From Plectonema cf. radiosum LEGE 06105 (GTDB lineage: Bacteria; Cyanobacteriota; Cyanobacteriia; Cyanobacteriales; Nostocaceae), in the NCBI RefSeq assembly GCF_015207665.1, contig NZ_JADEWL010000039.1, positions 1 through 49,497 on the forward strand: a stretch of 49,497 nucleotides of DNA, given 5' to 3'. The translations under genes and the position numbers were made by a program. Under the pieces are notes generated by a model. It was not told where the DNA came from. It made no database searches and saw only the letters and a list, made by a program, of their open reading frames with translations. This document shows, in pieces, positions 5,544 through 49,497 of the stretch; position 1 is the stretch's first letter; each line of letters starts with the position of its first letter.

Positions 5544-5741
5544 ATGCCAACAGATAAAGCACTAGTGAGCGTATATGTCCCTAAAGACATCAAAGAAAAG
5601 CTTGAAGTATGGGCAACTGAAGAAGACAGGTCTGTCAGTTATATAGTTGGCAGACTGATCATAGAAACGATTGAAGTTAGAGAATCAAAGAAAAATATTC
5701 CCCATGATTCTAAAGACAAAGGGGATAAGGAAGATGCATGA
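5544..5741 (+). CDS. Ribbon-helix-helix (CopG/Arc-type) DNA-binding protein
   Basis: A 65-residue protein. Residues 5-14 (ALVSVYVPKD) form the expected beta-strand and residues 15-48 the two helices (IKEKLEVWATEEDRSVSYIVGRLIIE), followed by a charged tail. This is the usual size and shape of a CopG/Arc repressor or an RHH antitoxin. A perfect AAGGAGGTGA lies at 5512-5521 but 23 bases before the ATG, and a ten-codon frame beginning at ATG 5503 overlaps it, so expression may depend on a short leader. The stop overlaps the next start by 4 bp (ATGA). RHH plus GIY-YIG pairs are common in cyanobacteria. Confidence 0.75.
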   Translation: MPTDKALVSVYVPKDIKEKLEVWATEEDRSVSYIVGRLIIETIEVRESKKNIPHDSKDKGDKEDA

Positions 5742-6070: not shown

Positions 6071-6445
6071 TAGGGGCTTTGAATTATTTAAGGAGGTTGT
6101 AGATGAGTTGATACGTTTAAAGGACAAAAAAGCTTAAAGTAAGCGAATTTTGCCCTAAAAACTAAATATTGCAACGGAGGGTTATATCTCAAAGAACCTA
6201 ACCAGTATGGATTGCTTGGACGGCTTTTCAATTACTGTTTAAGTCTTAACCAGAGATGACTCCGCTTTGTGCTACACACACATCTTATTACAAGTTGCGT
6301 CTCTCTGTACAGCTTTTTTTGCCACAATTGGACATTTTTTAAATCGTTAAATTCCGGCTCACAAAAAGAAAGTAGTAGACAGTTGCACAAAAACGCGGAA
6401 ACCCTCCACTCTTGTTCGCTTCAGTAACCAAAACAAGGAGGAAGT
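6071..6445 (+). other. Intergenic region upstream of the replication leader
   Basis: No intact gene. It holds the tail of the degraded GIY-YIG locus up to about 6137, including AAGGAGGTTGTAG followed by ATG AGT TGA, which cannot make a protein. The rest is AT-rich. Promoters for the 6446 leader probably lie here, but none is clear enough to mark. Confidence 0.4.
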
Positions 6446-6457
6446 ATGTATTTGTAA
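6446..6457 (+). promoter_or_regulatory. Three-codon leader frame with strong ribosome-binding site
   Basis: AAGGAGGAAGT is followed by ATG TAT TTG TAA (M-Y-L-stop). The first ten bases are nearly those of the primase start at 6805 (ATG TAT TTA CCA AAA AAT), so this looks either like a translational leader or like a duplicated, broken start left behind when the structured element at 6515-6777 arrived. Confidence 0.45.
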
Positions 6458-6514
6458 AAAATTAAGCCATTTTAATATGTCAGGGAATCATGACTTTAGC
6501 GCAAGAAAAAGCTG

Positions 6515-6777
6515 GGTAGTTCGCCTTGTGCTTGGTTAATTCCTTTCCGTGCAGCCACCATAGCCACACCGCAGTAAAGCGGTAGTTCGCCTGAGTCCTA
6601 GTTCCTACAGTTGTAGTAGTTCTAGCCTCATCCGTTCCACAGACCGAAAAAACCGCGAGACGATTTGCACTCGTCTCAGCACGCTGGAAAAATACCCCAG
6701 CGAATCAAAATATTAAGATTTGTTTTCATTCTAGGCTACACGTAAAGGAATTAACCAAAACAACGCAGGCGGCTACC
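6515..6777 (+). ncRNA. Multi-stem structured element upstream of the replication gene
   Basis: The ends form a long inverted repeat: 6515-6551 against 6739-6777, with TTGGTTAATTCCTTT paired perfectly and GGTAG / CTACC closing it. Inside are several perfect stems: CCGC/GCGG at 6569-6582, GAGACGA/TCGTCTC at 6657-6677 and CGCTGG/CCAGCG at 6682-6702. The box GGTAGTTCGCCT occurs twice, at 6515 and 6581. A further CCGAT/ATCGG hairpin (6778-6795) covers the ribosome-binding region of the primase start. It could be a structured 5' leader or counter-transcript locus controlling copy number, part of the origin, or a MITE. Transcription is not shown by sequence alone. Confidence 0.5.
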
Positions 6778-6804
6778 CCGATCATCAAGCATCGGAGCAG
6801 CCAT

Positions 6805-9135
6805 ATGTATTTACCAAAAAATTCAGAAAATCCAGAAAATCCAGAAAATAACCGCTTTTCAAGCCGTGCGGCTTCTGACAATAAAAAACACAAAACCCAT
6901 TCACCTGCCGACCCCGTGGGCAAGCGCTACGTAGAATGCTTCCACCACCCTCATGGCGCAATAGTAGCCCTTACACCATGCGGAGAAGAAAAACCAGCAT
7001 GGCGTACTATTAGCTATTACCTCCAAGCTTCCACCATGTGGAACTATCACCAAGACTCGTCCAAACTGGTGGGTATCCGCTTTGGGAACAGCACGAAATT
7101 CGGCGTAATTGACCTAGATAACGGCGGCGACTACCATAACCCAGAATCCGTAAAAAAAATCCGATACGCCCTAGAAGCGATTGGCATCACCGATACAATA
7201 CCCATACAATCAAGCTATAGCGGGGGCTACCACCTAATAATCCCCTTAGAAACCCAAATACCTACCTTCTCGCTCGCCTGCGCTTTAGAAATAGCATTAA
7301 GAAAAGCAGGTTTGAGCATTCGCCAAGGACATCTAGAAGTCTTTCCCAACGCCAAACCTTACGGCAGCAACACAGTTACCAACTACAACGCCATCCGCTG
7401 CCCCATGCAGCCCTATAGCGGTGCCTTACTCCTAGATGACGACCTGCAACCGATCGGCGACAGCGTAGAAGTCTTCTTAGACCACTGCGATCGCGCAGCA
7501 AGCCGCCAAGATTTAACAAAACTTAAAAGATTCGCCACAAAAGCCAGAAAACGGATAACCAAAGAAAGGTACAGCAAAACTTATTCTAAAGATGCTCTTG
7601 AATGGCGTACCGAGTGGGAAGAAATCATCGCCACCGGGTGGACTGGAAAAGGACAAACAAACACCTACCTACAAATCCTTGTAGGCTATGGAATAGTATT
7701 TTTGGGGTTAGAGTACTCCGAATTAGTTAAACACGCCTTAGAAGTCGCTACAAACGCCCCTGGCTACACGGAATATTGCGGACACCAACATGAAATAGAA
7801 GCTAGGATACGTCAATGGGCTAGAAACAGTATCAACAACAAATGGTATTCCGAATATGCTAGCTACCCAGAACGCCCCCGTGGAAGCTTTGCAGCCACAT
7901 TCGCGGAGATAATTGCAGGTGGTAGCAATGAAGAAAGGAGGAAGAAGAAAGAAGGAAGAAGTGGATTACCTCAAACTTCTTCCCTCTTCCCTCTTCCCTC
8001 TTCCTTCACTGATAACGTAATACCATTTGACCGACGTAAAGCACAAAGCGAACGGCGCAGCCAGGAAGCCCAAAGGCGCATTCGTTGGTCGGTAAAAGCA
8101 TTGGAATGGAGTACGGGCTTACCCGAAGGAATAACCGACCGAACTTTGGCAATAAGTGCTGAATACAAACGTAGTTTTGGTAAAACCATTTCTAGAGAAA
8201 CGCTGCGGAAATATCTCCACCTGTGGCATCCGAAATTTTATGTGGAAGACCCCTGGGCAGAAAATAGCTCAAACGTTTATCAGACGGATAAGTACGGGTA
8301 TTTTAACCGTCAAATAGCTGTTGACCAAAATAAAAACGCCCGAAATACTTACCAGATGGGCGAGTACGGGTATTCACCCTATATGAAGGTTTTGTGCCTT
8401 CCTCCGGCAGACGCTCCCCCGCAGGGGGGGTCGGCTGCTTCCGAAGTGTCCGATGAAGTTGATGGAGTGGATATTGAAAGACCAGGTGTTAATGAAAATG
8501 TAAATTTTTCTAACAATTCCAACAATCAACCAAATTCTGAAACCCAAAATCCAGAAATTGAAAATTGTTTTAATAATTCAAATAACGAATTAAATCCTGA
8601 GATTGAAAATCCAGAGAATTTAGAAAATCTAGAAATCATTGAAAATGTAAATAATCTTAACAATTTCAATGATTCCAACAATGAATTTAATAATTCAAAT
8701 GATTCATCAGAATGTTTAAACAATTTTAAACCGATAGAAAATAACTCTGATAAGTATTTTAAATACCCACATGGCTGCGGCGCGGCTGAAAATGGCGATA
8801 ATAAAAACTTATCAATCAATCTTGATCGAGCGGATTGTACTGTACCTTCATCTTCTTCTGTGCCACCAAAAGTTGAGGAATTGAAACGAGCTACCCGGTT
8901 GCGACTGAAAGCATTATCCGATGCCCAGAAAGCGGTGAGGACGTATTGCGTGATAACAGGACGTTTGTTACTAGGGCAAGAGCGATCGCGATTAGAGCAA
9001 ATCGCCAAGTACCAATTTTACTTGAATTCGGGATGCTCCGTGTTGGTAGCAGAGGCAGAAGCTTGGGCAGCTGTTAATCCTGGGTGCTTGCCGTTTAGTT
9101 TGGAGTCGGCATTCAACGAACGCGCCGACGAATGA
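6805..9135 (+). CDS. AEP-type primase, probable plasmid replication protein
   Basis: A 776-residue protein. The N-terminal third has the archaeo-eukaryotic primase core: D103 and D105 in FGVIDLDNGGDY (metal-binding DxD) and H143 in SYSGGYHLIIPL (the sGxH motif), followed by GHLEVFPN. It would prime or copy DNA to start plasmid replication. Residues about 400-470 hold a basic, helical DNA-binding-like region. Residues about 560-660 are an Asn/Glu/Ser low-complexity linker, and the last 80 are helical and charged. Two intergenic-type repeats sit in frame inside it (7930-8007 and 8407-8438). ATG at 6805 follows GGAGCAGCC. It is the only replication-initiator candidate on the circle. I see no helicase domain, so it may rely on host DnaB or on the SF1 helicase at 13449. 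Confidence 0.75.
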   Translation: MYLPKNSENPENPENNRFSSRAASDNKKHKTHSPADPVGKRYVECFHHPHGAIVALTPCGEEKPAWRTISYYLQASTMWNYHQDSSKLVGIRFGNSTKFGVIDLDNGGDYHNPESVKKIRYALEAIGITDTIPIQSSYSGGYHLIIPLETQIPTFSLACALEIALRKAGLSIRQGHLEVFPNAKPYGSNTVTNYNAIRCPMQPYSGALLLDDDLQPIGDSVEVFLDHCDRAASRQDLTKLKRFATKARKRITKERYSKTYSKDALEWRTEWEEIIATGWTGKGQTNTYLQILVGYGIVFLGLEYSELVKHALEVATNAPGYTEYCGHQHEIEARIRQWARNSINNKWYSEYASYPERPRGSFAATFAEIIAGGSNEERRKKKEGRSGLPQTSSLFPLPSSFTDNVIPFDRRKAQSERRSQEAQRRIRWSVKALEWSTGLPEGITDRTLAISAEYKRSFGKTISRETLRKYLHLWHPKFYVEDPWAENSSNVYQTDKYGYFNRQIAVDQNKNARNTYQMGEYGYSPYMKVLCLPPADAPPQGGSAASEVSDEVDGVDIERPGVNENVNFSNNSNNQPNSETQNPEIENCFNNSNNELNPEIENPENLENLEIIENVNNLNNFNDSNNEFNNSNDSSECLNNFKPIENNSDKYFKYPHGCGAAENGDNKNLSINLDRADCTVPSSSSVPPKVEELKRATRLRLKALSDAQKAVRTYCVITGRLLLGQERSRLEQIAKYQFYLNSGCSVLVAEAEAWAAVNPGCLPFSLESAFNERADE
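7930..8007 (+). repeat. Heptanucleotide repeat (TTCCCTC) inside the primase gene
   Basis: A purine-only run (7930-7962) faces a pyrimidine-rich run with tandem TTCCCTC units (7976-8007). This is the short tandemly repeated sequence normally found between cyanobacterial genes. Here it is read through in frame and encodes a Lys/Arg-rich then Ser/Leu/Pro-rich loop at about residues 376-401. Confidence 0.75.
8407..8438 (+). repeat. Small palindromic repeat inside the primase gene
   Basis: GCAGACGCTCCCCC pairs imperfectly with GGGGGGGTCGGCTGC across a three-base loop. It resembles short palindromes scattered through cyanobacterial intergenic DNA and adds a Pro/Ala/Gly stretch at the border of the Asn-rich linker without breaking the frame. 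Confidence 0.6.
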
Positions 9136-9586: not shown

Positions 9587-10834
9587 ATGTTAAAAGAAAT
9601 TCACCTCCAGCAAGTTGGTCTAGCTGACCATTTTGATGTTGAATTTGCCGATAGACTCAATATATTTACGGGCGATAACGGTTTGGGTAAAAGTTTTTTA
9701 CTCGATGTTGCTTGGTGGGTAATTACTGGAAATTGGGTAGAACAACCTGCTTATCCACAACGAAATAAAGAGGGAAACCCAAAAATTAACTGCCTAGTTA
9801 GCACCGAAAAAAACATAAAAGAATATCAAAGTGACTTTGATTTCTCAGAACAACAATGGCGTAATTTACAAATGCCTCCCTTATTAAAAGAGGTAATTAT
9901 TTACGTGCGTGTTGATGGTAGTTTTTCTGTTTTTGACCCCGCACGTAATCGGGATAATGCTTATAATTTTAATCCAGATACGCTTTGGAATGGCTTAAAA
10001 TCAAACGGTAAAGTTCTTTGTAACGGTTTGATTCAAGATTGGGTTACATGGCAAAATCAACCCAATAAATATCCATTTCAACTATTTTCTAACGTCATTA
10101 AAAAACTTGCATCTCATCCTTCTGAATGGATAGAGATTGGAGAACCAACGCGAGTTTCTGTGGAAGACGTGCGCGATATTCCTACAGTTAATCTACCTTA
10201 TGGTAACGTTCCTGTAACTCTAGCTTCTGCCGGAATGAAGCGGATTTTGGGATTAGCTTATTTACTAGTGTGGACTTGGTACGAACATAAAAAAGCTTCT
10301 GAACTGCGCCAAGAAAAGCCAACACATCAAATAGTTTTATTAATAGATGAAGTTGAATCTCACTTACATCCCCAGTGGCAAAGGGTAATTTTACCAGCTA
10401 TTTTAGATGTGGCGTGTGAATTACAAAATAGTATAAATATACAGGCTTTAGTAACTACTCATTCTCCACTGGTGCTTGCTTCCTTAGAACCAGATTTTGA
10501 TGAGGAAGAAGATAGATTATTTTTATTTGGATTAGAAGATAGAGAAGTCACTCTTAATGAAATACCTTGGTCAAAACAAGGAGATATAGTTGGATGGTTG
10601 ACATCAGAAATTTTTGGACTCAAACAAGCTCGTTCTAAAGAAGCAGAAAATGCAATTGAAGCCGCAGAAGCCTGGATGCGCCATGACGATTTGAATGTTT
10701 TTCCAGAAAACTTGAGAACCCAACCACAAATTCATCTTCAATTGCAAAGACTTTTACCCGGACACGACCCATTTTGGGCGCGTTGGATAGTCACATCAGA
10801 AAAAAGAAATTCTGCTGGGTTATCGGGGGTTTAA
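9587..10834 (+). CDS. SMC/ABC-like ATPase of a Septu-like defence pair
   Basis: A 415-residue protein. It has Walker A GDNGLGKS at about residues 29-36, a signature-like LASAGMKRILGLAYLL (about 212-228), Walker B VLLIDEVESHLHP (about 254-266) and an H-loop TTHSPLVLASL (about 290-300). These are the hallmarks of the OLD/RecF-type ATPases that partner nucleases in phage defence. The neighbour just downstream is an HNH nuclease gene, as in Septu (PtuA-PtuB) and related ATPase-HNH systems, where the ATPase senses phage and licenses the nuclease. The protein looks complete, but its partner is frameshifted, so the system is probably dead. Exact subtype not determined. Confidence 0.78.
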   Translation: MLKEIHLQQVGLADHFDVEFADRLNIFTGDNGLGKSFLLDVAWWVITGNWVEQPAYPQRNKEGNPKINCLVSTEKNIKEYQSDFDFSEQQWRNLQMPPLLKEVIIYVRVDGSFSVFDPARNRDNAYNFNPDTLWNGLKSNGKVLCNGLIQDWVTWQNQPNKYPFQLFSNVIKKLASHPSEWIEIGEPTRVSVEDVRDIPTVNLPYGNVPVTLASAGMKRILGLAYLLVWTWYEHKKASELRQEKPTHQIVLLIDEVESHLHPQWQRVILPAILDVACELQNSINIQALVTTHSPLVLASLEPDFDEEEDRLFLFGLEDREVTLNEIPWSKQGDIVGWLTSEIFGLKQARSKEAENAIEAAEAWMRHDDLNVFPENLRTQPQIHLQLQRLLPGHDPFWARWIVTSEKRNSAGLSGV

Positions 10835-13448: not shown

Positions 13449-16379
13449 ATGTCCAATCACCATTCAAAAATTACCAAGATATTAGATGCTTGGCTAGATT
13501 TCTTTTACCTAGAAAACCTTTGCCGAGCGCAAATCAATGCTGCTGATGATAGCAACCAAATCTTTGATAAAGGTATTTCTATCATTGGCGATAATCTCTC
13601 ATTGCATGAATCTACTTTCAAGGAACTCAAACAGCAATATCAGCAAGTTGTCAAAAAAGGTAAAACTAATGATTTTAAAATAGCCGTGACGTTTCCTTCT
13701 ATTTGGCGAGTCATTGATAACAGCCGCCGCTTTTATCCCTTATTTGCGATTGATATTTCTGCAATATTTACGGGCAATTATCGCGCTAAAGGATGGGACT
13801 TAAATAGTTGCAGCTTTCAACCAATCATTCCTAACTTGATGGAATTCTACGAATTAGATGAAGAGGAAGCAGAAAATTTGGTAACGCTTGAAGGGTTAAA
13901 AGTTTTTTTGGAAACGACCTTTAAAAAACCCTTTCAAACTTTACAAGATTTTGTTGACTTGATTGAAATACCTCCCAAACCGTACACAACCAAGCGCAAT
14001 CCTTATTTATTTCAGTGCAGTTTGGGAAATTGGAATTACAACTTAAAAAAAGATTTGCAGAAAATTCTGGACACACCACATTCATGGGCGCAACCGGGAC
14101 ATCCTGCTTACGAATACTTGTTTGGGAAGCCCAACGAACTAACCCATGAAACATTGTATGGTGGAGCTTTTCCTACCCATCCCCCAACCGACTCGCAAGC
14201 CGCAGTTCTCAAACACGCTCAAAAAAATCCTCTTACCGCAGCTTTTGGACCACCAGGTAATGCTAAAACAACGATTACCCTACATCTTATAGCGCAGCAA
14301 GTAGTAAAAAGGGCGCTACATTTAGCACAAACAGGAGAAGATATAAGCAATCTAACTTTAGTTACCAGTACTAATAATCGGGCAGTAACTAATGTTGAGG
14401 AAAGATTATCCCCCATAACAGGAACGGAACGTTTTTATTTATCAGGAGGTAGTAAAGAGTTAATTAATCAACAATTACTGCCGAAGCTACAGGCTGCGCT
14501 TGATTGGTTGCAACAACAAAGTTTTGACGCAAGCAAATTAGCAGAAATATCTGCTCAATTGTTAGCAGTAGAAAACCAAATTCAAACTCTACAAAACCAA
14601 GACCAATTTTACGTAAAACAACAAGCTGCTGATAACGAATTATTGAAACGGTTGAATGTAGATATTCAAGTTTTGGTAGAAGAAATAGCCAACCAGGAAA
14701 GAGGAGTTAGTACAGATTCCTCTCATTTACTACGGAGTAATGCTGATTCCCATCAACTCAATCTGCAACTTATTAAAACTGACTATTCCCAATATCCATT
14801 TGATGCCTACTTGGAAATAGAACCGCATTTAAATAATGCAATTCGTGCGCTGTATTGTACTAAAAACCGATTAAATAAAGGCAGAAATAATAATTGGTGG
14901 ACAAGATTTCAACGCTGGTTAGTCAAATTCTGGCGACAATTAACTAAAACTACTGATCGACATATTCTCAAACGGCTGTACCAACAAATTGAAATTCCCA
15001 TATCTGCAACTCTAGCGACACCTTTTCCATTTCAAATGCCGTTGACGCGAGAATCGTTAATTGCTGCTAAATCTACTCTCGCGGCGCAATTGGAAGCTGC
15101 AAACCAATGGCGCGAACATTTAGGAAATATGTCAAATGCTCTTCGTCGTCTTGAAGAGATGAAAACTCGCAAATTACAGCTATCTGAGAAACTTGCATCA
15201 ATTCCCACCCAAGAAAACTGCACCCCCAGTAACACCGAACATCATCACTTACAAGTGCAGTTGTTTGAATTATCGTGGCAATATCTGCAATTAATCGCCC
15301 TCAAACGCAATTCAGAAGTAATCAACTCCATCAAAACTTATATCGCCTTTCTTAACGGCGAATGGGATGCATTCCGTACCATAGCACGTGATTGGCGCAA
15401 TATCTACCGCAACCTCAGCCTCATATTTCCTGTATTTACATCAACTCTACATTCAATCCGCAACCTCTTCCCCTACCCCGACAGCGGTTGTATTGACCGG
15501 GTAATTGTAGACGAAGCTGGGATGATACCACTCCACCAAGCATTCCCGGTATTGGTGCGCTCTCTACAAGCATTGTTTGTGGGCGACCCCATGCAACTCG
15601 AACCAGTGATGAATTTGACCCAGCAGACCCTAGAACAGTACTGTAACCAAGCTTTTAATGCACGGGGACTAACAGCAGAATATTACGACCTCTATAGCCC
15701 TACAGCTACCAGTACAGCTACTGCCTATCACCGGGCTGCTGGTGCAAACGGACAACCGGGAGACATGGGACAAGGGATTATCCTCAAAGAACACTATCGC
15801 TGCGTAGAGCCGATTATCTCATATTGCGATCGCGTTTGTAATTACGGCATGGTTGTCAAAACCCCAGATAAACCATCGTTGCTTGGCTCCAACCTAATTG
15901 CATACCACGTTCCAGGTGAATACGAATCCCACACTAACCCGGCTGAAGTCTTGGCGGTGGAAAGAATTGTGGCTCAACTACTTGAAGCGGGCTACTGCAT
16001 TAATTCACCAGACAACGATAAAACGATAGGAATCATTTCTCCCTACCGTCGTCAAGCGAATGCGCTCAAATCCCATTTGCAATCAGTTTGGCAAGATTTT
16101 TCTCCTGGCAGTATTGGCACGGTTCATACTTTCCAAGGAGGCGAAAAATCAGCGATTATTCTATCAACTCGTCAGTGTCGTTCGTCAGATAGTTTGTGGT
16201 TTATCAACCGCCGTCCAAATCTACTGAATGTGGCTGTAAGTCGCGCTAAGGAATTGTTTATTTTGGTCGGCAATTTGGAGCGTTTAGAACAAGCAGGGGG
16301 CTATTCTAAAATGCTTGTTGAGCATATTAGTCAGCATGGAGAATTACTTGATATAGCGCATCCTCGTCACGCAGCATGA
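13449..16379 (+). CDS. Large SF1 (UPF1/Dna2-like) helicase, unknown role
   Basis: A 976-residue protein. Walker A is GPPGNAKTT (267-275), Walker B VIVDEAG (685-691) with VGDPMQLEPV after it (motif III). IISPYRRQ and HTFQGGEKSAII (motif V, Q896) and NVAVSRAKELF (motif VI) complete a Superfamily 1B helicase. Residues 1-230 are an unidentified N-terminal domain. About 350-650 between motifs I and II is a long helical, coiled-coil-like insertion. Such big solo helicases occur on plasmids and in defence islands and may remodel nucleic acids or protein-DNA complexes. The gene is intact and alone between the parB fragment and a 774-bp gap. A role in replication with the AEP primase or in defence are both possible; I cannot decide. 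Confidence 0.8.
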   Translation: MSNHHSKITKILDAWLDFFYLENLCRAQINAADDSNQIFDKGISIIGDNLSLHESTFKELKQQYQQVVKKGKTNDFKIAVTFPSIWRVIDNSRRFYPLFAIDISAIFTGNYRAKGWDLNSCSFQPIIPNLMEFYELDEEEAENLVTLEGLKVFLETTFKKPFQTLQDFVDLIEIPPKPYTTKRNPYLFQCSLGNWNYNLKKDLQKILDTPHSWAQPGHPAYEYLFGKPNELTHETLYGGAFPTHPPTDSQAAVLKHAQKNPLTAAFGPPGNAKTTITLHLIAQQVVKRALHLAQTGEDISNLTLVTSTNNRAVTNVEERLSPITGTERFYLSGGSKELINQQLLPKLQAALDWLQQQSFDASKLAEISAQLLAVENQIQTLQNQDQFYVKQQAADNELLKRLNVDIQVLVEEIANQERGVSTDSSHLLRSNADSHQLNLQLIKTDYSQYPFDAYLEIEPHLNNAIRALYCTKNRLNKGRNNNWWTRFQRWLVKFWRQLTKTTDRHILKRLYQQIEIPISATLATPFPFQMPLTRESLIAAKSTLAAQLEAANQWREHLGNMSNALRRLEEMKTRKLQLSEKLASIPTQENCTPSNTEHHHLQVQLFELSWQYLQLIALKRNSEVINSIKTYIAFLNGEWDAFRTIARDWRNIYRNLSLIFPVFTSTLHSIRNLFPYPDSGCIDRVIVDEAGMIPLHQAFPVLVRSLQALFVGDPMQLEPVMNLTQQTLEQYCNQAFNARGLTAEYYDLYSPTATSTATAYHRAAGANGQPGDMGQGIILKEHYRCVEPIISYCDRVCNYGMVVKTPDKPSLLGSNLIAYHVPGEYESHTNPAEVLAVERIVAQLLEAGYCINSPDNDKTIGIISPYRRQANALKSHLQSVWQDFSPGSIGTVHTFQGGEKSAIILSTRQCRSSDSLWFINRRPNLLNVAVSRAKELFILVGNLERLEQAGGYSKMLVEHISQHGELLDIAHPRHAA

Positions 16380-17153: not shown

Positions 17154-18926
17154 ATGGCATACGCAATTTTTTTAACGAAAAAACTAAAAACTGGCGGACA
17201 AATTGCGGGTTCTGCTAGTCACGTTCAACGCGATAGAGAAACGCCTAATGCTAATCCTTATAAAGAGAATGTTTGGTTAATGGGCAATCCCGAACAAGAT
17301 TTAGTCCAAGACACCTTTAATCATATTGGTAATCAAACTATTCGCAAGAATGCCGTGCTTTGTGTAGAACTAGTTTTATCTGCATCCCCGGAGTTTTTTC
17401 GTCCCAGTACTCAAACCGAACCCGGTGAATACGAACAATTACAATTAAACCGTTGGCTCGATTTCAACAAGCAATGGTTGCAGGAACGATTTAACGTCAC
17501 ACCCGAAGGAATTTCCGTTCCGCACAATCGTATAATCTCAGCCGCCGCTCACTTAGATGAGGTTACACCCCACATCCACGCACATATGGTGCCAATTGAT
17601 AAACGCGGTAAACTCAATGCCAGTGCGTTTTTCGGTTCTCCTAAATTATTACGGGAATGGCAAGATGATTACGCTCAAGCGATGAAACCCCTTGGTTTGG
17701 AACGCGGGATACGGGGAAGTAAGGCGACACATATTGATATCGGACGATATTACACTAATATTAATTCTCCTCAAACAGATAATATTGAAGTACTGCGCGA
17801 TAAAGCTAGGGACAGGGATAGAGCGGAACGTCAGCGTCGGGAGATCGAAGCAACTGCACTTGCAAAACAAAAAGAAGCTGATGAATTAAGAAGACAAAAC
17901 CAACAGTTGCAGCTGCAAATTCAGATTCAAAAAAAGAAATTAGAAGAGTTATCCAAATCGCCCTATGATATTTCTTTGGAAGATGTAGCCTATCAACTGG
18001 GATTCGAGCGCGATAAAAATAAACCTTTACTTTGGCTTAGTACAGACAGGTTACTGATGATTAACGACAACAAGTTTGCTACCAAGTCTGCTTCTTCTAA
18101 TTCTGAAGAAACTGGAGAAAATCCCATCGATTTAGTACAAACAGTTTTGGATGTAGAACAACGTGAAAGCATTGGTTGGCTCGCCGATAACTTTGGTTCC
18201 GATGTGGCGATCGCCAACTTTATGAAGAAGATAAAACCAGAAATTCTCCAATACCCCACACCTAAATTCCAACCACCTTCCTCTTCGGAACAGAAATGGC
18301 AGCAAGCAAAAAGCTATCTCACCAACACCTATGGAATTAGCGACAAAGTTTTAGAAACAGAGCATTCCCACAATCGTATCTATGCTGATAATCAAGGCAA
18401 TGCTGTAATCAAGCACTACTTAATTGCCCCCAGTAGAGAACATTTAAAGCAAGGAACCGTAGTAACGGGAGCTAGTATTGTAGGTGAGAAATTCAATGGA
18501 GTAGCATTAGGTTCCAGTCGTACAGAAGGTTGGTTTGGTATAGGATTTGACGAAGGTAAACTACATCAAGTTGCTCTAGCAGATTCGCCGATTGAAGTAT
18601 TTTCCCTTGCATCGCTCAATCCAAAGCCCAAAAAACCAACGGTATTTTTAACAGCAAATGGTTCTATTTCAGAAAGTCAGATACATTTACTGCAACGCAT
18701 TCAGTCAAATGGTGGCGAAATCATCTTAGCTTATAGCGCTACATCTTCTGGAGAGAAGCTAGTCAAACAAGTATCAGAACAACTGCAAGAAACTCGTAGA
18801 GTCAAGCCTCAAGCGGGTGAAACTTGGAATGATGACTTACGACTTCTTCGCGAACAGCTTCAACAAGAAAGGGAAAGACTGCAACAAAAACAAAAATCGG
18901 TTAAGCGAGGTATTGAATTAGACTGA
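17154..18926 (+). CDS. mobV: MobV-family relaxase with DUF3991/TOPRIM-like tail
   Basis: A 590-residue protein. It has motif I around H23-R28 with NANP (HVQRDRETPNANP) and motif III H133-L-D-E-V-T-P-H-I-H142, the HxDExTPHxH metal site of MobV (Pre/Mob) relaxases. It should nick oriT and pilot the strand into a recipient. A coiled coil (about 220-265) follows. The C-terminal 250 residues resemble the DUF3991 plus TOPRIM_2 module fused to relaxases and primases (NRIYADNQGNAVIKHYL, GSSRTEGWFGIGF, PTVFLTANGSISES). The TOPRIM acidic residues are not clearly conserved by eye. The end is a Gln/Arg coiled coil. No type IV secretion genes are present, so the plasmid is mobilisable rather than self-transmissible, unless the 213-4942 operon supplies part of a channel. 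Confidence 0.88.
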   Translation: MAYAIFLTKKLKTGGQIAGSASHVQRDRETPNANPYKENVWLMGNPEQDLVQDTFNHIGNQTIRKNAVLCVELVLSASPEFFRPSTQTEPGEYEQLQLNRWLDFNKQWLQERFNVTPEGISVPHNRIISAAAHLDEVTPHIHAHMVPIDKRGKLNASAFFGSPKLLREWQDDYAQAMKPLGLERGIRGSKATHIDIGRYYTNINSPQTDNIEVLRDKARDRDRAERQRREIEATALAKQKEADELRRQNQQLQLQIQIQKKKLEELSKSPYDISLEDVAYQLGFERDKNKPLLWLSTDRLLMINDNKFATKSASSNSEETGENPIDLVQTVLDVEQRESIGWLADNFGSDVAIANFMKKIKPEILQYPTPKFQPPSSSEQKWQQAKSYLTNTYGISDKVLETEHSHNRIYADNQGNAVIKHYLIAPSREHLKQGTVVTGASIVGEKFNGVALGSSRTEGWFGIGFDEGKLHQVALADSPIEVFSLASLNPKPKKPTVFLTANGSISESQIHLLQRIQSNGGEIILAYSATSSGEKLVKQVSEQLQETRRVKPQAGETWNDDLRLLREQLQQERERLQQKQKSVKRGIELD

Positions 18927-20095: not shown

Positions 20096-23000
20096 ATGAC
20101 AAGCATTGATATATTTGGTAAAGATACTTCTAATAATGAAGAATTTTTCTCTGCTTCCATATTAGATAATTCTGAAGAAGATATTTATGGTTTAAATGCA
20201 GCTAATAAGGTTGATAAAAATACAGGAACTGAACCCTTAGCTGCGGAAATAGAAAGACTTAAATCAGAAAATTTTAATATTGCATATAACACCGATAACA
20301 TTGGTGACGATACCGTTAATTCAGTATCGTCACCATTTTTATATAATCAAATATCTACTCCAAACCAATTATTCGGACAACAAGTAACTGATTTTAAGAA
20401 AATAAATACCGATTTAGATAAAGATTTAGATAAAACCTCGATTGATTTCATTACTGGTAATAACAAAAATAATCCTTTAGTCGGTACATTTGAACTTGAC
20501 TCAAATTTAAACTCAGATTCAAATTTATTAATAATAGAAAACGACATTGCTGCATCTCCCATCCCAATGTCAGCGTCTGCACCTACTCCTAAATATGCAA
20601 TAAGAACCGAGAAACAAGTTAGCATTAATAACGGTGGAGATTTAGACGGAAATCCTCTCGATTTAAACGACGATTCTTTAATTTATGCTGCCAAAGGTTT
20701 TACGATTAATGGCAACATTACCCTACCAGTACAAAGAGATGAAAACGGTAATCCCCTTACTAATAATTCTGGTAAATTACTTTTAGTAAATAATGCCGTT
20801 ACCGTTGCTCCGAATTACACTACCATCAATGCGAATAACAATCAATATGCTAATTTAATCCCTCCACAAGTAGTAGATGAACAAGTAATTGATATTCCAG
20901 CTTATGCAGATTTAAAACAGCAAACATTAGATAGCGTTATTGCTCCAGGTACATCAACAGTTACCTTTAATTCGAGTCAAAATCCTCTAAATAATTCTCA
21001 AGATTGGAATAACAAATTCCCAGCACCGGGTACTGAGTCAAATCCACGAGTTGTCAGAGTTACGGGTGGGGGATTAAATATTCCCGGTAATATTAATATC
21101 AGCAATTATGTTATCACCGTAGACAACGGAGATATTAACTTTAACGGCAACAACCATAACTTTAATAATATTGTATTAATTACCAACAACGGTAATATTA
21201 ATTTATCTGGGGTACAGGCAACAAATTTATCTGTATTTGCTTCTCGTTCAATTAATATGAACAGTACTGCTAGATTTGCTAGTTCTACAATGCTAGCATC
21301 TGGAAGCAATAGCGGTAGCATTAACTTCAATGGTGCGACGACAAGTACTAACTCTGATGATAATTTGAGAGTAGTTTCAGCTGGTAGAATCACCTTTAAC
21401 GCTGCATTGAATAGCCGTGGGTTATTTGAGAGTGTAGGCGATTTTACCTTCAATAATAATTCCACTTTGTACGGTACTATTGCTGCAAAGGGAAATATTA
21501 CTTTTAATAATGGTGCCAATGTTATCTACACCAACGATACAACTGAAGAAGTAGATACGGAACAACCAGTAATTACAGCTGCATTGGTTAACGATACCGC
21601 ACCAAATAATACTACCAATACAGATAGAATTACATCCGACCCCACAATTAATGGTACGGTAACTGATAATGGGGAGATAGTTGAATTCACCGCAGGGTTT
21701 GACGATACAGACATTGCCGCTTATGTCAATGTATTGCCTCAACGCTCGGCAAATGGTAATTTTAGCTTTGATAGAACAACTTTAGAATCTATTTACGGTA
21801 ACACCTTACCGGATGGAAATCATACTTTGCATCTACTCTCCAAAGATGCTTCGGGTAATGTTTCCAATTTATTCGATTTAACGTTTACGTTAGATACGGT
21901 AACAACAGCACCAGCTAATTTAGATTTAACAGCAACCGATGATAGCGGAGTTGACGACAGCGATAATATTACTAATAATTCAACTCCTGGAATTACGGGT
22001 AATGCAGAAGCTCTTTCAAAGGTAGAATTATTAAACAATGGAGTCAAGATTGGAGAAGCGGAAGCTGATAGCAACGGAAATTGGCAAATAACCACCAATA
22101 ATTTAGCAGACGGTAATTATAATATTACGGCTATTGCCACCGATATTGCTGGAAATCAAAATCAATCAGATGTACCCCTGTTGCTGACAATCGATACCAC
22201 AGCACCCCTATCTCCCATTAACTTAAAATTGTCTCCAGATAGCGATTCTGGAATTAACAACAGCGATAATATTACCAACAATAATTCTCCCACCATCACT
22301 GGTAATGCAGAACCACTATCTACAGTAAGGTTGTTGCAAAATGGAGAATTAGTCGGAGAAACAACAGCTACGGACGATGGAAGTTGGCAGATTGCCACAA
22401 ATAATCTTGCAGACGGTACTTATAACTTTATCGCGATCGCAACCGATATCGCAGGAAATACTAACAACTCTCCAACATCACTGCAAATAACGGTTGACAC
22501 TACACAACCAACAATCAACCTTACCACGAGCATTGATACAGAAGCGCTGACCCAGGGGTCAAAATTAACTGGTAACTTAGATGGTACTGGTAGCGATATC
22601 TCTACTATCAGCTACCGTTTTAACGATGGTGCAGAAATTATCGTTCCCTTTGATGCTGCGGGTGCTTTTGATGCTCAATTTGATTTAACCGGACTTAACA
22701 ACGGTGCTTATACGCTGACTGTTACTATTACCGATACCGCAGGTAACGTCAACACGATGACCTACAATGTCACCGTCGGTACGGTTACAAGTGCCTATGA
22801 AATTACAGCAGCTTTAGTCAACGATACTGCTCCTAATAATACTACCAATACTGATGGTATTACCAGTGATGCAACAATAGCTGGAAATATTAATAATTTC
22901 AGCGATAGCGTCCGTCTGCGTGTGGGTTTTGGCGATATTCCTGTATTAGATTACGTAGATGTCACCGAAGATATCAGTAGCGAAGGTAACTTTAATTTCA

Positions 23001-26000
23001 ATTTGAGTCAACTCGCTTCGATCAACCGTGCATCTTTAGAAGATGGAGCATACAGCCTCAATTTACTTTTAGAAGACTTACAAGGTAATCAGTTAAATAC
23101 TTCCACAGTTAACTTTACCCTCGATACCAGCAATCCTATTCTCGCATTAAATACGCCCTTAGATAGCGGCGAACATAGCAATAGGACGCGACTAATTGGT
23201 AACGTTAGCGATACTGGTAGCGGTTTGTTTGATACTAGCTATAGCTTGGATGGACAAGCATCTTCTCCTTTAACCATTAACGATCGAGGAAGATTTGACC
23301 AAGCCATTGTTCCCACAGGTTTGATAGATGGTTCTCACAACTTGGCATTATCGGTATTTGATATTGCTGGTAACTCTACCCAAAAGTCCGCTAACTTTAC
23401 AGTCAGCGACGATTTTATCATTGGCAGCACGGGGACACAAGGCTGGGGAATTAAGACAAACGATAGCGTAATTTTGGGCGAACAAAACAGCTTTGTCACC
23501 CAAACCGCAATAGAAATTGAACTTGGTCAAAATAAAGGTAAGCGTCAATTAGAATTTGAAATCGATGCTCAATTTGATACCACTGACATCAATACCGCAT
23601 CGTCAGACAGATTGTCACTTTATCTGGTAGATTCAATCAACCCAGAAATCACCTTACTCGACAAAGGAGAACCGGGAACCGCTTTATTTTCCCTTTCTGG
23701 AACCAATGCAGAATTCACCCCCGGACTGGTAAATTACGACGGGAATCGGGTCAGAGTTGACCTCACCAGCTTAAAAAGTCAAACCAGCGGTTCCTTAGTA
23801 TTCCAACTAATTAATAACGACAACGATACTGGTAGCGTCGTCCAAATCAAAGATATTACCAATACCGTTGACACAGAAGCAATAAATGGTCCCGTATTCC
23901 CCACAGATATTGACCGAGCGGAAATCGGCGATCAAATAAATTTAGATACTTTCAATACCTCATCTGACGTAGAATTACTGCTATCTAACGTCCGACTTGA
24001 TAGCGATACGGGGACTTACACCGCAGATTTACAAGTCCGCAATAACGGAACTACAACTCTCGGACGGGAATTAGCAGTTGTATTGACAAATCTCCCTTCG
24101 GGTGTTTCCCTAAATAACGCTTCCGGAACCCATCCTGGAGGTTCTCCCTACATCAATTTCAGTAATGCTATTCAACCGGGTGGCTTGAATCCTAAAGCCA
24201 TATCCGACGCGGTACAAATTGTCTTTGATAACCCATCCTTAACCCGCTTCGATCTGCAACCAGTATTCTTAACGGGAGCGCCAGAACAACCGCCTCAACT
24301 GGCTCCTGTAGCATCGCAGAGCGTAATGCCGGGTGGGCGGTTAGAAATACCGTTAATTGCTACCGACCCCAACGGCGACCCCATTAGCTTCTCGCTGCGT
24401 TCCGACACCCCCTTACCCAAAGGAGAACTAACCGGGGATGGAACGCTGGTTTTTACCCCCAGTCCTGACGATATTGGCACCTATAACTTCACCGTAATTG
24501 CTACTGCTGGTGGGGTAGACGTTACCCAAGACGTAACCATTACCGTAGAACCAGACCCCATTACTACTACGAGGATTTCTGGTGTTATTCAAAACACCGA
24601 CCAAGCAGCATTAGCCGGAGTAGTAATTGAATTAGGTGGAACGCAAACGACTACCGATGCGTCGGGTTACTTCCAACTTGAATTTAACGGAGAATTACCC
24701 AGCGATACCCTCAAAGTAAGGGCAGAACTACTTGCTGGCAACGATGCTTATCCGTTTATTGCCGAGAAACTGCCATTGCTATTAGAGCATGATGCCTACG
24801 CAGGGGTAAATAACGTTATTAGCCGTCCCATCTACCTGCCAGTGCTAGATACGGCAAATGCGATCGCAGTTGATCCAAATGCAGATACAACCGTGACCAC
24901 CAGTACTATTCCCGGTGCATCCGTATTTGTAGCAGCAGGTAGCTTAAAAGACCAACAGGGGAATGCTTTTACGGGCGGGTTGAGCATTACAGAAGTCCCC
25001 GCAAACTTAACACCTGCCTCCTTACCGGAAAATCTGCGTCCGGATATGGTAGTGACTATTCAGCCAGGGGAAATGGTGCTTACAACTCCTGCACCTTTGT
25101 CACTGCCCAATCGTGCTGGATATGTACCGGGGTTGGAGATGGACTTGTGGTCAATTAATCCCAATACTGGGTTGTTTGACAAAGTGGGAGTCGGAAGAGT
25201 TAGCGATGATGGTAGCGTAATTGAGACGATTGAGGGGGGGATTCGTAATAGTAGTTGGCACTTCTTTGCACCTGTTGCAGTAGGCTTATCCGACCTAGAG
25301 GAAAATCCATACAACCACAACGGAGAGTATCTTACAGAAGTAAATACATATTTTGAAGAAGTTAAAGAACTAGGTTTACATAATGCAACCAAACACGTTA
25401 AGCACGATAAATGCTCTGAGGGCGAAGCCACTCAACCAATTAACTCAGATGTAGAATTGCATTCGGGTGCGGTACAAGAAACTCACAATCTGGTTACTTA
25501 CGAGTCTTTGGGCAAAACTCGCGGTTTAGCTTTGAGTTATAGCTCCTTGCGTGCCGACCCCAAACCAATCTTACATTTTGGAGCCGATAATATTACGTAT
25601 GAGAATGCTTCTGGGAACCCAGATGATGTGCTTGAAAATTTATTCGTTGCCAAACTGAGCGTCAAGCAAGGTGATTTTGAGTATCAAGTACCAGGTGTCG
25701 CTGAAGGAAAATACGGTTTATCTGGAGGAGAAAACTTCTGGTCGATACCTGGTCGTAATCCTAACAACGAACCTTTTGATATTGATGCTGCCTTGCAGGT
25801 AGATATGCGCTCTTTACCTACTGGTAAATATGAATACAAGGTCACGGGCGGTCTACAAGTATTTACAGACGAAGAAGAATTTAATGGTTCTTCAACAACT
25901 ACAACGAGCGAGATAATTAGTGTCAACAGCATTGACAGTCCTTTCGGTAGCGGTTGGAGTTTAGCTGGATTGCAGGAAGTAGTTGAGAATGACGACGGTT

Positions 26001-29000
26001 CCGTACTGCTAGTTGATGGTGATGGTAGCCAATTCTTATTTGAAGCCCCCGCAGAACCAGGTGATTCTTATGTTTCTCCATCATTCGACTTTTCTACCTT
26101 AGAACGTGTAAACGGTACTTTCCGCCGCACCATGAAAGACCAAACCGTTTACCAGTTTGATGCCCAAAACAAACTTGAATTGGTACGCGATCGCAATGGC
26201 AATGAAACGCAGTACCAATATAATCCCGACGGTAAGCTTTCCAAAATAATTGACCCCGTAGGTTTGGAAACTGCGTTTACTTACACCAACGGTAGAGTTA
26301 GTAGCATCACTGACCCAGGAAATCGCGTTACCGAACTTAAATACGACACCAAAGGTAACTTAATTGAGATTACCGACCCCGATGAATCTTCTCGCAGTTG
26401 GGAATACGATAAATCTCACCGTATTACCGCTGCAATTGATAAACGCGATAATCGCGGAGAGGACGTTTATGATTCTTACGGTCGGGTCAAGAGTGCCGTT
26501 CGTCCGGATAAAACGGTAGTCAAGGTCAATTCAGCTCAAACACAAGGATTATACCGTCCGGAACAGACCCTTAATCCCTTCAATGCTCCTTTAGCCGATG
26601 AACTGGGTGATGCGGAAGCTAGCTATGCTGATGGTAACGGTAATGTAATTCGCACAAAACTTGACCAAGAAGGTCAGACTATTTCCTCAATAGATGGGGC
26701 TGGATTTTTGCCCGAAGTTGAGCGGAATGACAGTAATCTAGTGACAAAATCTACAAGTGCAAGAGGAGATGTCACGGAGTACACTTACGATGACAAAGGC
26801 AACATTCTCAGTATTAAGGATGAGATTTCTAGCCCTTTTCAAGGAACGGATAGCATCGCTGACCAAAGCTTATTCCCTAATGCCATTTATAAGATAGAAC
26901 AATACTCAGATCAAATCGTAGCAGCAGATTTCAATGGCGATGGCTTTCTTGATTCTGTAATTGCTAATTATTATTCCAACAATGTATCTATTCTTCTTGG
27001 AAACGAAGATGGAACATTTGGTGTTGCTACTAAATTTGAAATAGAAAACTCATCTTCTTCTATTGCAGTAGGAGATATGAATGGAGATGGTTTTCTTGAC
27101 TTAGTAAGTTTAGATAATTATTATTCCAATAATGTATTAATTGTTCTTGGGAACGGGGATGGAACATTCGGTACTACCGCTAACTTTGAATTAGAAAATG
27201 AAACTGATTCTCTCGCTGTAGGGGATATGAATGGAGATGGCTTTCTTGATTTAGTAGCTGCAACTGGATATGACTATTATTCCAACAATGTATCTATAAT
27301 CCTTGGAAATGGGGATGGAACATTCGATAATGTCACTAAAATTGAATTAGAAAATGAAGCTGATTCTCTCGCTGTAGGGGATATGAATGGAGATGGCTTT
27401 CTTGACTTAGTAGCTGCAACTGGATATGACTATTATTCCAACAATGTATCTATAATCCTTGGAAATGGGGATGGAACATTCGGTAATGTCACTAAAATTG
27501 AATTAGAAAATGCCTCTAACTTCCTTGTTTTAGGTGATTTAGATAATGATGCCGATTTAGATATTGTAGTCGCCAGCGGTGATGGCTATGGTGTTGAAGG
27601 TAGCCTATCGTTGCTGTCAAACAACGGCGACCTTACTTTTACTCAAACAGCAGACATTGCAGTAGAAGAAGTTTATAATTTCGCATTAGGTGATGCAAAT
27701 GGGGATGGTCTGCCTGACCTAATCACTGCTAACAACGATGATTATCGGGATCGATCGAGTGTATCGATACTTTTGAATGATGGAAACGCTTCTTTTGAAA
27801 CGACTGATGAAAGCACTGAATTTGAAGTTGGGCTTAATCCAGAATTCATAACATCCGGAGATATCAATCAAGATTCAGCCCCCGACTTATTGATTCTAAA
27901 TAACCCTGGTACTGGGATATTGAACCTATCCGTTTATCTTGGTAGAGGTGATGGTGTTTTCTCCGATCCAATAAATTCCGCGATTAATTTTTACACTACA
28001 TCCGTGGTTTTGGGAGATGTAAATGGCGATATCAATCTCGACTTAATAACTGCTAATGGATTGGATGATAGTGTATCGGTACTGTTAAATAATGGCAATG
28101 GTACTTTTGCTTCTGCGGTTAACTATACGGTTAGTGACAGACCACTATCGGTAGTTGTGGAAGATGTAAACGGCGATACCAATCTTGACTTAATAACTGC
28201 TAGTGAAGATGATGATAGCGTATCGGTACTGTTAAACAATGGTGATGGTACTTTTGCCACTAAGGTTGATTATGCAGTTGGAAATGGTCCAGAATCAGTA
28301 ATTGTAGAAGATATTAACGGCGATACCAATCTCGACTTAATAACTGCTAGTGAATTTGATGACAGCGTATCGGTACTGTTAAACAATGGGGATGGTACTT
28401 TTGCCTCTACGGTTGACTATACGGTTGGTAACAGACCAAGATCAGTAGTTGCAGGAGATATGAATGGAGATAACAATCTTGACTTAATAACTGTCAATGA
28501 ATTTGATGACAGCGTATCGGTACTGTTAAATAATGGGGATGGTACTTTTGAAGAAAGCATTGACTATACAGTTGGCGAAAGACCAACATCAGTAGTTGTA
28601 GAAGATTTAAATGGAGATAACAATCCTGACTTAGTAACTGTCAATAAATTTGATGACAGCGTATCGGTACTGTTAAACAATGGGGATGGTACTTTTGAAG
28701 AAAGCATTGACTATACAGTTGGCGAAAGACCAATATCAGTAATTGTAGAAGATATAAATGGGGACGGTAATTTTGATATATTTACCACTAATTCCTACGA
28801 CGATACAGTATCAGTATTGTTAAACAATGGTTCGGGTTCTTTTGATGAAGCAAATATTCGTTACTTTGCCGTAGGACGATTTCCCAAATCTATCACATTG
28901 GATGATTTTGATGGTGATGGGGATTTAGATTTTGCTACTGCTAATAAAAGTGATGCTACTGTCTCTGTAAGATTTAACAATACAGTTGGTTCTGGAGGAA

Positions 29001-49116: not shown

Positions 49117-49475
49117 TTCCTGGTTTTTTTGGTGATGAAGATGCTTTATTTTTTGAGATTGAACTAATATCATCTGATGGTTTAGAACTGCCAGTTGATG
49201 CACTTTTTGATACTGGCTTTTCTGCTTGGTTAGCTATTAACAATCAAGATTTAGATGCGCTTGGTTGGACATATATAAAACAGCAGCCAATGTTTACCGC
49301 ACGGGGGGAAGCAGAATTTGAGATTTATTTGGGTAAAGTAATATTTGGCGGTCAAGAATACGATATTCCCGTTCATGTTGGCTACGGATTAACGGAAGTT
49401 TTACTTGGTCGTCAATGGTTGCAAAGTAAACGATTAGTGGTGGATATAAATAAGAATGAATTGACGTTAGAATGA
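49113..49475 (+). CDS. Retropepsin-like aspartic protease
   Basis: A 120-residue protein from ATG 49113, chosen because it overlaps the previous stop by 4 bp; a GTG at 49101 would add four residues. LFDTGFSAWLAI carries the D33-T-G catalytic motif of retroviral-type aspartic proteases, and VLLGRQWLQSKRLVVD is the later hydrophobic-Gly block that completes the flap-and-psi-loop fold. Such single-domain proteases work as homodimers. The substrate could be its coupled partner (48799-49116). The gene crosses the artificial end of the window; its last 105 bases appear again at 1-105. Confidence 0.85.
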   Translation: MIPGFFGDEDALFFEIELISSDGLELPVDALFDTGFSAWLAINNQDLDALGWTYIKQQPMFTARGEAEFEIYLGKVIFGGQEYDIPVHVGYGLTEVLLGRQWLQSKRLVVDINKNELTLE

Positions 49476-49497
49476 CGTTATTTATTGGTGATTATTT
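49371..49497. repeat. Terminal redundancy, right copy
   Basis: Identical to 1-127; see that entry. Removing one copy gives a circle of 49,370 bp. Confidence 0.93.

What the first reader, a model, noticed from the sequence alone, without database searches (positions are those of the whole stretch)
6446..6804. Elaborate structured element between a strong ribosome-binding site and the primase start
A 37/39-base inverted repeat with a perfect 15-bp core encloses several perfect internal stems and a duplicated GGTAGTTCGCCT box. It sits between a perfect ribosome-binding site reading M-Y-L-stop (6446) and the primase start, which also reads M-Y-L. A small hairpin (CCGAT/ATCGG) covers the primase ribosome-binding site. 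This could be a leader-peptide/RNA switch for copy number, an origin whose hairpins are primed by the AEP, or a MITE that landed in the start codon region. RNA control of copy number is known for other cyanobacterial plasmids such as pSYSA.
Basis: partly seen in the sequence, partly recalled or inferred. Interest (0 to 1): 0.72.

Follow-up and report, generated by a model that had tools for sequence, protein, structure and literature searches.

The report
RNA switch before plasmid replication gene
A cyanobacterial plasmid carries, just in front of its replication gene, a conserved RNA-type fold in which the strand next to the gene's ribosome-binding site can pair either with that site or with a matching strand far upstream, which probably sets how much replication protein is made and so the plasmid's copy number.

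Summary
The element (6435-6807) lies on an apparently complete circular plasmid (127-bp terminal overlap), is single-copy in its genome and folds far beyond chance (z -7.4). Related plasmids explain it. Box1 (GGTAGTTCGCCT, 6515-6526) is one strand of a long-range helix; its partner box5 (AGGCGGCTACC, 6767-6777) lies directly 5' of the rep Shine-Dalgarno (SD) hairpin. In 24 loci, window included, the helix scores -22.9 to -30.7 kcal/mol and is in all 24 minimum-energy folds; two further loci have it with one mismatch (-24.5). Compensatory changes occur in this helix, the SD hairpin and the closing stem. Since box5 can pair upstream or with the SD strand, the simplest reading is an RNA switch on translation of the replication initiator: like the IncI-alpha RepZ leader in logic, unrelated in sequence. 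Its sign, its action as plus-strand RNA and any antisense RNA are unproven; an origin role is not excluded. MITE is rejected. The leader ORF is conserved only in some relatives; here it is MYL-stop. No Rfam match.

The parts
6435..6457 (+). Strong ribosome-binding site (AAGGAGG) plus truncated leader ORF ATG TAT TTG TAA (MYL*)
   Evidence: by eye it corresponds to the start of the longer leader ORF of relatives such as L055 and L058
6477..6539 (+). Possible second leader ORF, 20 aa (MSGNHDFSARKSWVVRLVLG*), no SD motif, runs over box1 and stops inside the closing stem
   Evidence: same ORF with one substitution in L032
6514..6526 (+). Box1 (GGGTAGTTCGCCT): distal strand of the long-range helix
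6534..6556 (+). Closing stem, 5' arm
   Evidence: 4 compensatory double changes versus L032 over 23 positions
6581..6592 (+). Second copy of the box (GGTAGTTCGCCT); also present in L032; possible alternative partner of box5
6657..6677 (.). Conserved hairpin H3 (GAGACGA-loop-TCGTCTC); the whole hairpin is inverted in some relatives; terminator-like on the minus strand here
6682..6702 (+). Hairpin H4 (CGCTGG...CCAGCG); in several relatives its loop (CTATCCAA) is complementary to box1, by eye
6734..6756 (+). Closing stem, 3' arm
6767..6777 (+). Box5 (AGGCGGCTACC): proximal strand of the long-range helix and anti-SD strand
6771..6802 (+). SD hairpin: GGCT/AGCC outer and CCGAT/ATCGG inner pairs around the SD GGAG (6794-6797)
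   Evidence: 93.5% of cells paired, 10 double-change cells, 0 of 500 shuffles as many
6805..9135 (+). rep: 776-aa AEP/Prim-Pol-like replication protein

Best explanation
It is the structured 5' leader of the mRNA of a plasmid replication initiator, and it controls translation of that initiator. Box5, just 5' of the rep SD, contains an anti-SD sequence (CUACC[C/U]). In one fold box5 pairs with the SD strand (SD hairpin, rep off). In the other it pairs with box1 about 250 nt upstream (long-range helix stacked on a closing stem), which removes CUACC from the SD strand (rep on). Whatever occupies box1 (a leader-ORF ribosome, an antisense RNA, or the H4 loop) would then set Rep level and copy number. 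Shown here: both helices, their conservation and covariation, their overlap on box5, and the position next to the start codon. Inferred: transcription of the leader, action as RNA, the sign of the switch, and the copy-number role.
For: Helix in 24 of 24 pattern-selected loci (15 distinct box pairs), own pairings better than any of 20,000 permutations, and in 24 of 24 minimum-energy folds; the two loci that failed the box1 pattern have it too, with one mismatch. The GGGTAG/CTACC core is fixed by my search pattern; the informative part is the variable flank: C-G in L054, U-G in L038, U-A in L077 at one pair, and CCGC/GCGG to CCAC/GUGG in L005. SD hairpin: 10 double-change cells against 3.9 in shuffles, 0 of 500 as many. 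Closing stem: 4 compensatory changes window versus L032. More distant Rep relatives (L046, L047, L009, L064) show the same layout with other letters, the distal strand again resembling the SD strand. In L035 and L004 the SD strand carries GGUAG, as box1 does. Only the rep start among 19 ORF starts has so strong a partner. Rep has invariant DxD (D103, D105) and SGGxH residues (AEP motif recalled); its profile's best PDB match, E 0.0099, is 7nqd (recalled as a CRISPR-associated Prim-Pol).
Against: No expression data. Masking box1 in silico lowers predicted SD accessibility in 10 and raises it in 9 of 19 loci; in the window 0.26 to 0.27, so the sign is not supported by folding. The minus strand folds more stably in 18 of 19 loci. 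Wobble strand test ambiguous: long-range helix 8 plus versus 11 minus, SD hairpin 13 versus 6, H3 6 versus 14; in L037 and L079 the helix core has A-C on the plus strand, G-U on the minus. Column-wise count of the long-range helix not decisive: 15 double-change cells (14 of 500 shuffles as many), 5 pairs with double changes (349 of 500 as many), and partners slid by -3 give 21 cells, though 55.9% versus 78.9% of cells pair. In the SD hairpin, pairs with double changes (3; 127 of 500) and pair types (496 of 500) are not above shuffles. Best upstream partner against shuffles (of 40 at least as good): window 0, L038 0, L036 2, L035 4, L033 4; distant type L046 0, L064 1, L009 10, L047 11; L051 14 and L012 9. 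The permutation test does not correct for relatedness. Template switching can make compensatory changes and loop inversions without selection (PMC8794818, passages).
Confidence: 0.57

Rival explanations
1. It is (also) the plasmid origin: hairpins and inverted GTTGGRTAG-like motifs act as DNA, as Rep-binding sites or hairpins primed by the AEP-type Rep during replication.
For: Position next to rep; H3 is inverted between relatives (L044 versus L058 and L038 versus L005 read as exact reverse complements), which implies that the hairpin forms in DNA at least occasionally; box1, H4 loop and box5 look like one motif in both orientations (by eye); Rep is AEP-like; strand tests do not favour plus-strand RNA; the cumulative GC skew has its maximum at 5736, close to the element, though after a flat stretch.
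Against: The SD hairpin next to the start codon covaries, and partners can be about 500 nt apart, unlikely for duplex DNA. In L033/L034 the same element precedes a ParB-like gene instead of this rep.
Confidence: 0.25
2. ColE1/pSYSA-like control: the leader transcript serves as replication primer and an antisense RNA of the minus strand blocks it.
For: Proposed for pSYSA (PMC9978351, sections read); the minus strand folds more stably in 18 of 19 loci; terminator-like minus-strand sites at 6656-6678 and 6395-6409 (2 found, 0.7 +/- 0.9 expected); a minus-strand terminator-like site at H3 in 8 of 17 loci scanned.
Against: Rep is not CyRepA1; no promoter-like site of the sigma-70 consensus next to box1 on the minus strand (window only); H3 site lacks the T-run in 9 of 17 loci.
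Confidence: 0.12
3. Leader-peptide attenuation alone: translation of a leader ORF that ends at box1 controls rep, and pairing matters only as its read-out.
For: ATG leader ORF with SD-like motif overlapping box1 in 9 of 24 loci; strong SD in the window.
Against: No such ORF in 10 of 24 loci with the same helices; the strong start of the window gives only MYL*.
Confidence: 0.05
4. MITE or other mobile insertion that landed in front of rep.
For: Long imperfect inverted repeat.
Against: One copy in the genome; same position and partly alignable in relatives; covariation tied to the rep SD.
Confidence: 0.01

Closest known systems
IncI-alpha (ColIb-P9) repZ leader with Inc antisense RNA, and the related IncB and IncL/M leaders
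   Same: Rep translation set by a long-range pairing next to the rep ribosome-binding site; exclusive folds; a leader ORF in some members.
   Different: No sequence relation seen; distal strand not in a conserved hairpin loop; helix of roughly 14-20 bp rather than a short loop pseudoknot; leader ORF missing in many members; antisense RNA unknown; different Rep. Details of IncI-alpha come from passages in PMC10724649, PMC8383071 and PMC7646527 plus recall.
pSYSA ssr7036/asRNA1/CyRepA1 of Synechocystis PCC 6803
   Same: Cyanobacterial plasmid; overlapping or structured RNA region directly upstream of a rep gene; short upstream ORF.
   Different: Rep family differs; the boxes were not seen (by eye); proposed primer mechanism (PMC9978351).
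IncFII R1 CopA/CopT-tap-repA (recalled)
   Same: Leader ORF upstream of rep and structured leader.
   Different: No long-range anti-SD swap of this kind that I recall; no comparison was run.

Membership tests
IncI-alpha/IncB/IncL-M pseudoknot-controlled rep leaders | rep SD occluded by an adjacent hairpin | tested here: met
   (predicted folds)
IncI-alpha/IncB/IncL-M pseudoknot-controlled rep leaders | upstream strand complementary to the strand just 5' of the rep SD | tested here: met
   24 of 24 pattern-selected loci and the 2 others; 19 ORF starts compared
IncI-alpha/IncB/IncL-M pseudoknot-controlled rep leaders | that upstream strand lies in a hairpin loop, giving a pseudoknot | tested here: inconclusive
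   with box1 held unpaired, an 8-bp stem presents it in the window and L032; weaker enclosing stems in L038, L054, L077 (and short ones in L004, L005, L055); none in the other 8 of 16 loci; in all 16 the unconstrained fold is more stable
IncI-alpha/IncB/IncL-M pseudoknot-controlled rep leaders | translated leader peptide needed for rep expression | tested here: inconclusive
   ATG ORF with SD-like motif in 9 of 24 loci, without it or with TTG start in 5, none in 10
IncI-alpha/IncB/IncL-M pseudoknot-controlled rep leaders | countertranscribed antisense RNA against the upstream strand | not testable with these tools
   no expression data; no promoter-like site near box1 in the window
CyRepA1 plasmids (NCBIfam NF042913) | Rep matches the CyRepA1 profile | tested here: not met
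   no NCBIfam match for the window Rep; Slr7037 scores 595.8 bits; no significant BLASTP similarity
Any described RNA family (Rfam 15) | covariance-model match at the gathering score | tested here: not met
   0 matches in the window; one match of E 3.1 outside the element
MITE | multiple dispersed copies | tested here: not met
   1 copy in 7.6 Mb
AEP/Prim-Pol replication proteins | DxD and SGGxH catalytic motifs | tested here: met
   invariant D103, D105, S136, S137, G140, G141, H143 in 9 aligned proteins; motif recalled
AEP/Prim-Pol replication proteins | profile or fold match | tested here: inconclusive
   prediction failed (pLDDT 42.7); profile to PDB 7nqd E 0.0099; no Pfam match for the window Rep; pSYSG relative L049 matches PF09250 Prim-Pol at E 0.0014, below the curated cut-off

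The most novel reading that the evidence does not exclude
A so far unnamed class of plasmid-borne cis-regulatory RNA in cyanobacteria. A distal strand mimics the SD strand and competes with it for one anti-SD strand; both exclusive helices covary; the same architecture recurs with different sequence in front of more distant Prim-Pol Reps; and the module has also been placed before a ParB-like gene. It would be the copy-number switch of a large, unstudied group of Nostocales plasmids.
Probability: 0.38. Interest if true: 0.72.

Novelty: new variant of a known kind. Interest (0 to 1): 0.57.

Why it matters
Replication control of large cyanobacterial plasmids is known in few cases; the abstract of PMC10899382 says that, except for CyRepA1 on pSYSA, the Rep proteins of the large Synechocystis plasmids were unknown before its AR-seq work. 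Here a conserved, testable element is tied to a Prim-Pol-type Rep with matches in 67 plasmid records, distant ones included (most frequent names Nostoc 14 and Leptolyngbya 8); the element itself was shown in 26 loci. If right, it gives a target for copy-number engineering in laboratory cyanobacteria and an independent solution to the problem solved by the enterobacterial RepZ pseudoknot.

Tried and rejected
MITE: single copy. Known RNA family: no Rfam match. Conserved loop pseudoknot: strong enclosing stem only in the window and L032, weaker or none in the other 14 of 16 loci. Universal leader peptide: absent in 10 of 24 loci. Coding strand by wobble pairs: ambiguous. Sign by SD accessibility: mixed. 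Minus-strand terminator at H3: 8 of 17 loci. U-turn (YUGG) in box1: dropped as evidence, because my box1 pattern required these letters. pSYSA: a complementarity between ssr7036 and the slr7037 leader (0 of 40 shuffles) was not recognised, by eye, in the CyRepA1 relatives L125-L128 (L129 fetched, not examined); left open. Box1 pattern alone is not specific: 26 places in 23 of 388 genomes; of the 18 places not already known, only L151 has box5, and best downstream duplexes of the other 17 were -10.3 to -25.5. Box5-SD pattern: 8 of 388 genomes, 6 of them directly before this Rep, G040 and G104 without a listed Rep match. Viral contigs: box1 match L080 lies in phage-like coding sequence; the 44 loci were not examined; two protein scans gave one distant relative, L164, and one short match, L165. 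Rep structure prediction failed, so no fold search was run. L037 and L079 are not in the 24 because they failed the strict box1 pattern; they carry GGATAG instead and are given. Other plasmid hits with close Reps (H2, H3, H5, H6, H10, H11, H13, H14, H16) were not fetched.

Full report
What is there. The window looks like a complete circular plasmid of about 49.4 kb: its first and last 127 bases are identical, and a same-genus genome (G007; L032 is a contig of the same length, 49,479 bp) has a counterpart. Between a strong ribosome-binding site at 6435-6441 followed by ATG TAT TTG TAA (6446-6457) and the start of a 776-aa replication protein at 6805 lies a structured stretch. Its inverted repeat (about 6511-6557 with 6733-6780, -55.6 kcal/mol), the duplicated GGTAGTTCGCCT box (6515, 6581) and the small hairpin at the rep ribosome-binding site are real. 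The 6525-6765 part folds 7.4 sd below 200 shuffles. Of 19 ORF starts tested on the plasmid, only rep has an upstream partner this strong (-37.4 versus -13.7 to -21.4 kcal/mol).

Single copy and relatives. The element occurs once in the host genome. The Rep has matches in 17 of 100 near genomes and 59 of 388 genomes of the order, own genome included in both, and in 67 plasmid records. I read upstream regions of closer ones. By strict box1 and box5 patterns, 24 of 27 loci given to carry both (window included); L080 is unrelated, and L037 and L079 have a box1 with GGATAG. The shared order is: box1 (UGGGUAG...), a closing stem, two hairpins (H3, H4), then box5 (...CUACC[C/U]) abutting an SD hairpin and the start codon.

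The key pairing. Box1 and box5 are complementary in each: 15 distinct box pairs give -22.9 to -30.7 kcal/mol, and none of 20,000 permutations pairs them as well as their own partners (relatedness is not corrected for, and the GGGTAG/CTACC core is fixed by the pattern). The pairing is in the minimum-energy fold of 24 of 24 cores (5 or 6 of the 6 GGGTAG bases), although the cores are 221 to 573 nt long. L037 and L079 reach -24.5 with an A-C mismatch in the core. Informative changes in the flank include C-G (L054), U-G (L038) and U-A (L077) at one pair of near relatives, and CCGC/GCGG to CCAC/GUGG in L005. The column-wise count is weaker, because the register shifts between groups: 78.9% of cells paired; 15 double-change cells, reached by 14 of 500 shuffles; pairs with double changes not above shuffles (349 of 500); a slide of -3 gives 21 cells. 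Between the window and L032 the closing stem shows 4 compensatory double changes, 2 mismatches repaired and 1 pair lost over 23 positions.

The competing pairing. Box5 also forms the 5' side of the SD hairpin (GGCU...C[C/U]GAUG with CAUC[G/A]...GG...AGCC). This hairpin is 93.5% paired across 19 sequences with 10 double-change cells (3.9 in shuffles; 0 of 500 as many); two other measures do not exceed shuffles. In L035 and L004 the SD strand itself contains GGUAG, as box1 does. More distant Reps (35% and 34% identity for L046 and L047) have the same layout with other letters: AUCGG..AGCUGCCCACAC upstream against GUGUGGGUAGCUCCGAU, which otherwise pairs with UCAUCGGAG. In that test the number of 40 shuffles at least as good was 0 (L046), 1 (L064), 10 (L009) and 11 (L047); for the close type 0 (window), 0 (L038), 2 (L036), 4 (L035) and 4 (L033).

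How it probably works. Two exclusive partners for one anti-SD strand make a translational switch the simplest reading. I lean to the long-range helix being the ON state, because it takes CUACC away from the SD strand, as the RepZ pseudoknot is reported to enable repZ translation (PMC8383071, passages); the sign here is inference. Masking box1 lowered predicted SD accessibility in 10 and raised it in 9 of 19 loci, so it decides nothing. No promoter-like site for an antisense RNA was seen near box1 in the window.

The leader ORF. An ATG ORF with an SD-like motif running into box1 is found in L004, L035, L036, L044, L045, L055, L056, L058 and L078 (9 of 24), in five of them ending at the UAG of GGGUAG. 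The window and L032 keep a strong start but stop after MYL, and have a second, SD-less ORF over box1; ten loci have none. The leader peptide is therefore an accessory, not the core.

Protein. The window Rep has no Pfam or NCBIfam match. Invariant DxD and SGGxH residues, a weak profile match to PDB 7nqd (E 0.0099) and a sub-threshold Prim-Pol match of the pSYSG relative suggest an AEP/Prim-Pol. It is not CyRepA1. A structure prediction with two rows failed.

Against a plus-strand RNA view. The minus strand folds more stably in 18 of 19 loci (the minus strand can form more G-U pairs). H3 is inverted between relatives, so it forms as DNA at times; several H3 stems have A-C on the plus strand where the minus strand has G-U; the wobble test is mixed. 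The cumulative GC skew peaks at 5736, near the element, after a flat stretch, which would also suit an origin. In Calothrix plasmids L033 and L034 the same element precedes a ParB-like gene; L151 has the same boxes, its gene was not read. That fits a movable translational module but does not exclude a cis-acting DNA site.

Literature. In the searches run I found no report of this element or of a long-range SD switch in cyanobacterial rep leaders. Seen: PMC9978351 (abstract and three named sections), PMC10899382 (abstract and passages), PMC10724649, PMC8383071, PMC7646527 and PMC8794818 (passages).

Noticed in passing
1-127 and 49371-49497: Identical 127-bp ends: the contig is very likely a circular plasmid of about 49,370 bp.
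   Followed up: yes
6657-6677 and the same hairpin in L005, L036, L038, L044, L058: Hairpin H3 is found in both orientations among relatives; L044/L058 and L038/L005 read as exact reverse complements, a footprint of hairpin inversion.
   Followed up: partly
L033 4939-5258, L034 4939-5258, L151: Same element upstream of a ParB-like gene (L033, L034) instead of the Prim-Pol Rep; gene of L151 not read.
   Followed up: partly
L048 about 866-880 and 1105-1120 (pSYSA): CACAGAAGGGGUU inside ssr7036, under the published asRNA1 footprint, is complementary to AACCCUUCUGU in the slr7037 leader (-29.8 versus -24.2 +/- 2.0 in 40 shuffles); not recognised in relatives.
   Followed up: partly
6400-6441: CCTCC upstream is complementary to the leader SD GGAGG; L035 shows the same arrangement by eye, so the leader start may be occluded too.
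   Followed up: no
20096-33091: A single 4331-aa ORF covers about a quarter of the plasmid.
   Followed up: no
9587-10834, 13449-16379, 17154-18926: AAA ATPase weakly similar to PtuA, IGHMBP2-like helicase (below cut-off), and MobV relaxase.
   Followed up: no
L003/L019/L029 and L032: In the nearest relative the rep match comes in three pieces with a stop inside one of them, so that copy may be broken or misassembled.
   Followed up: no
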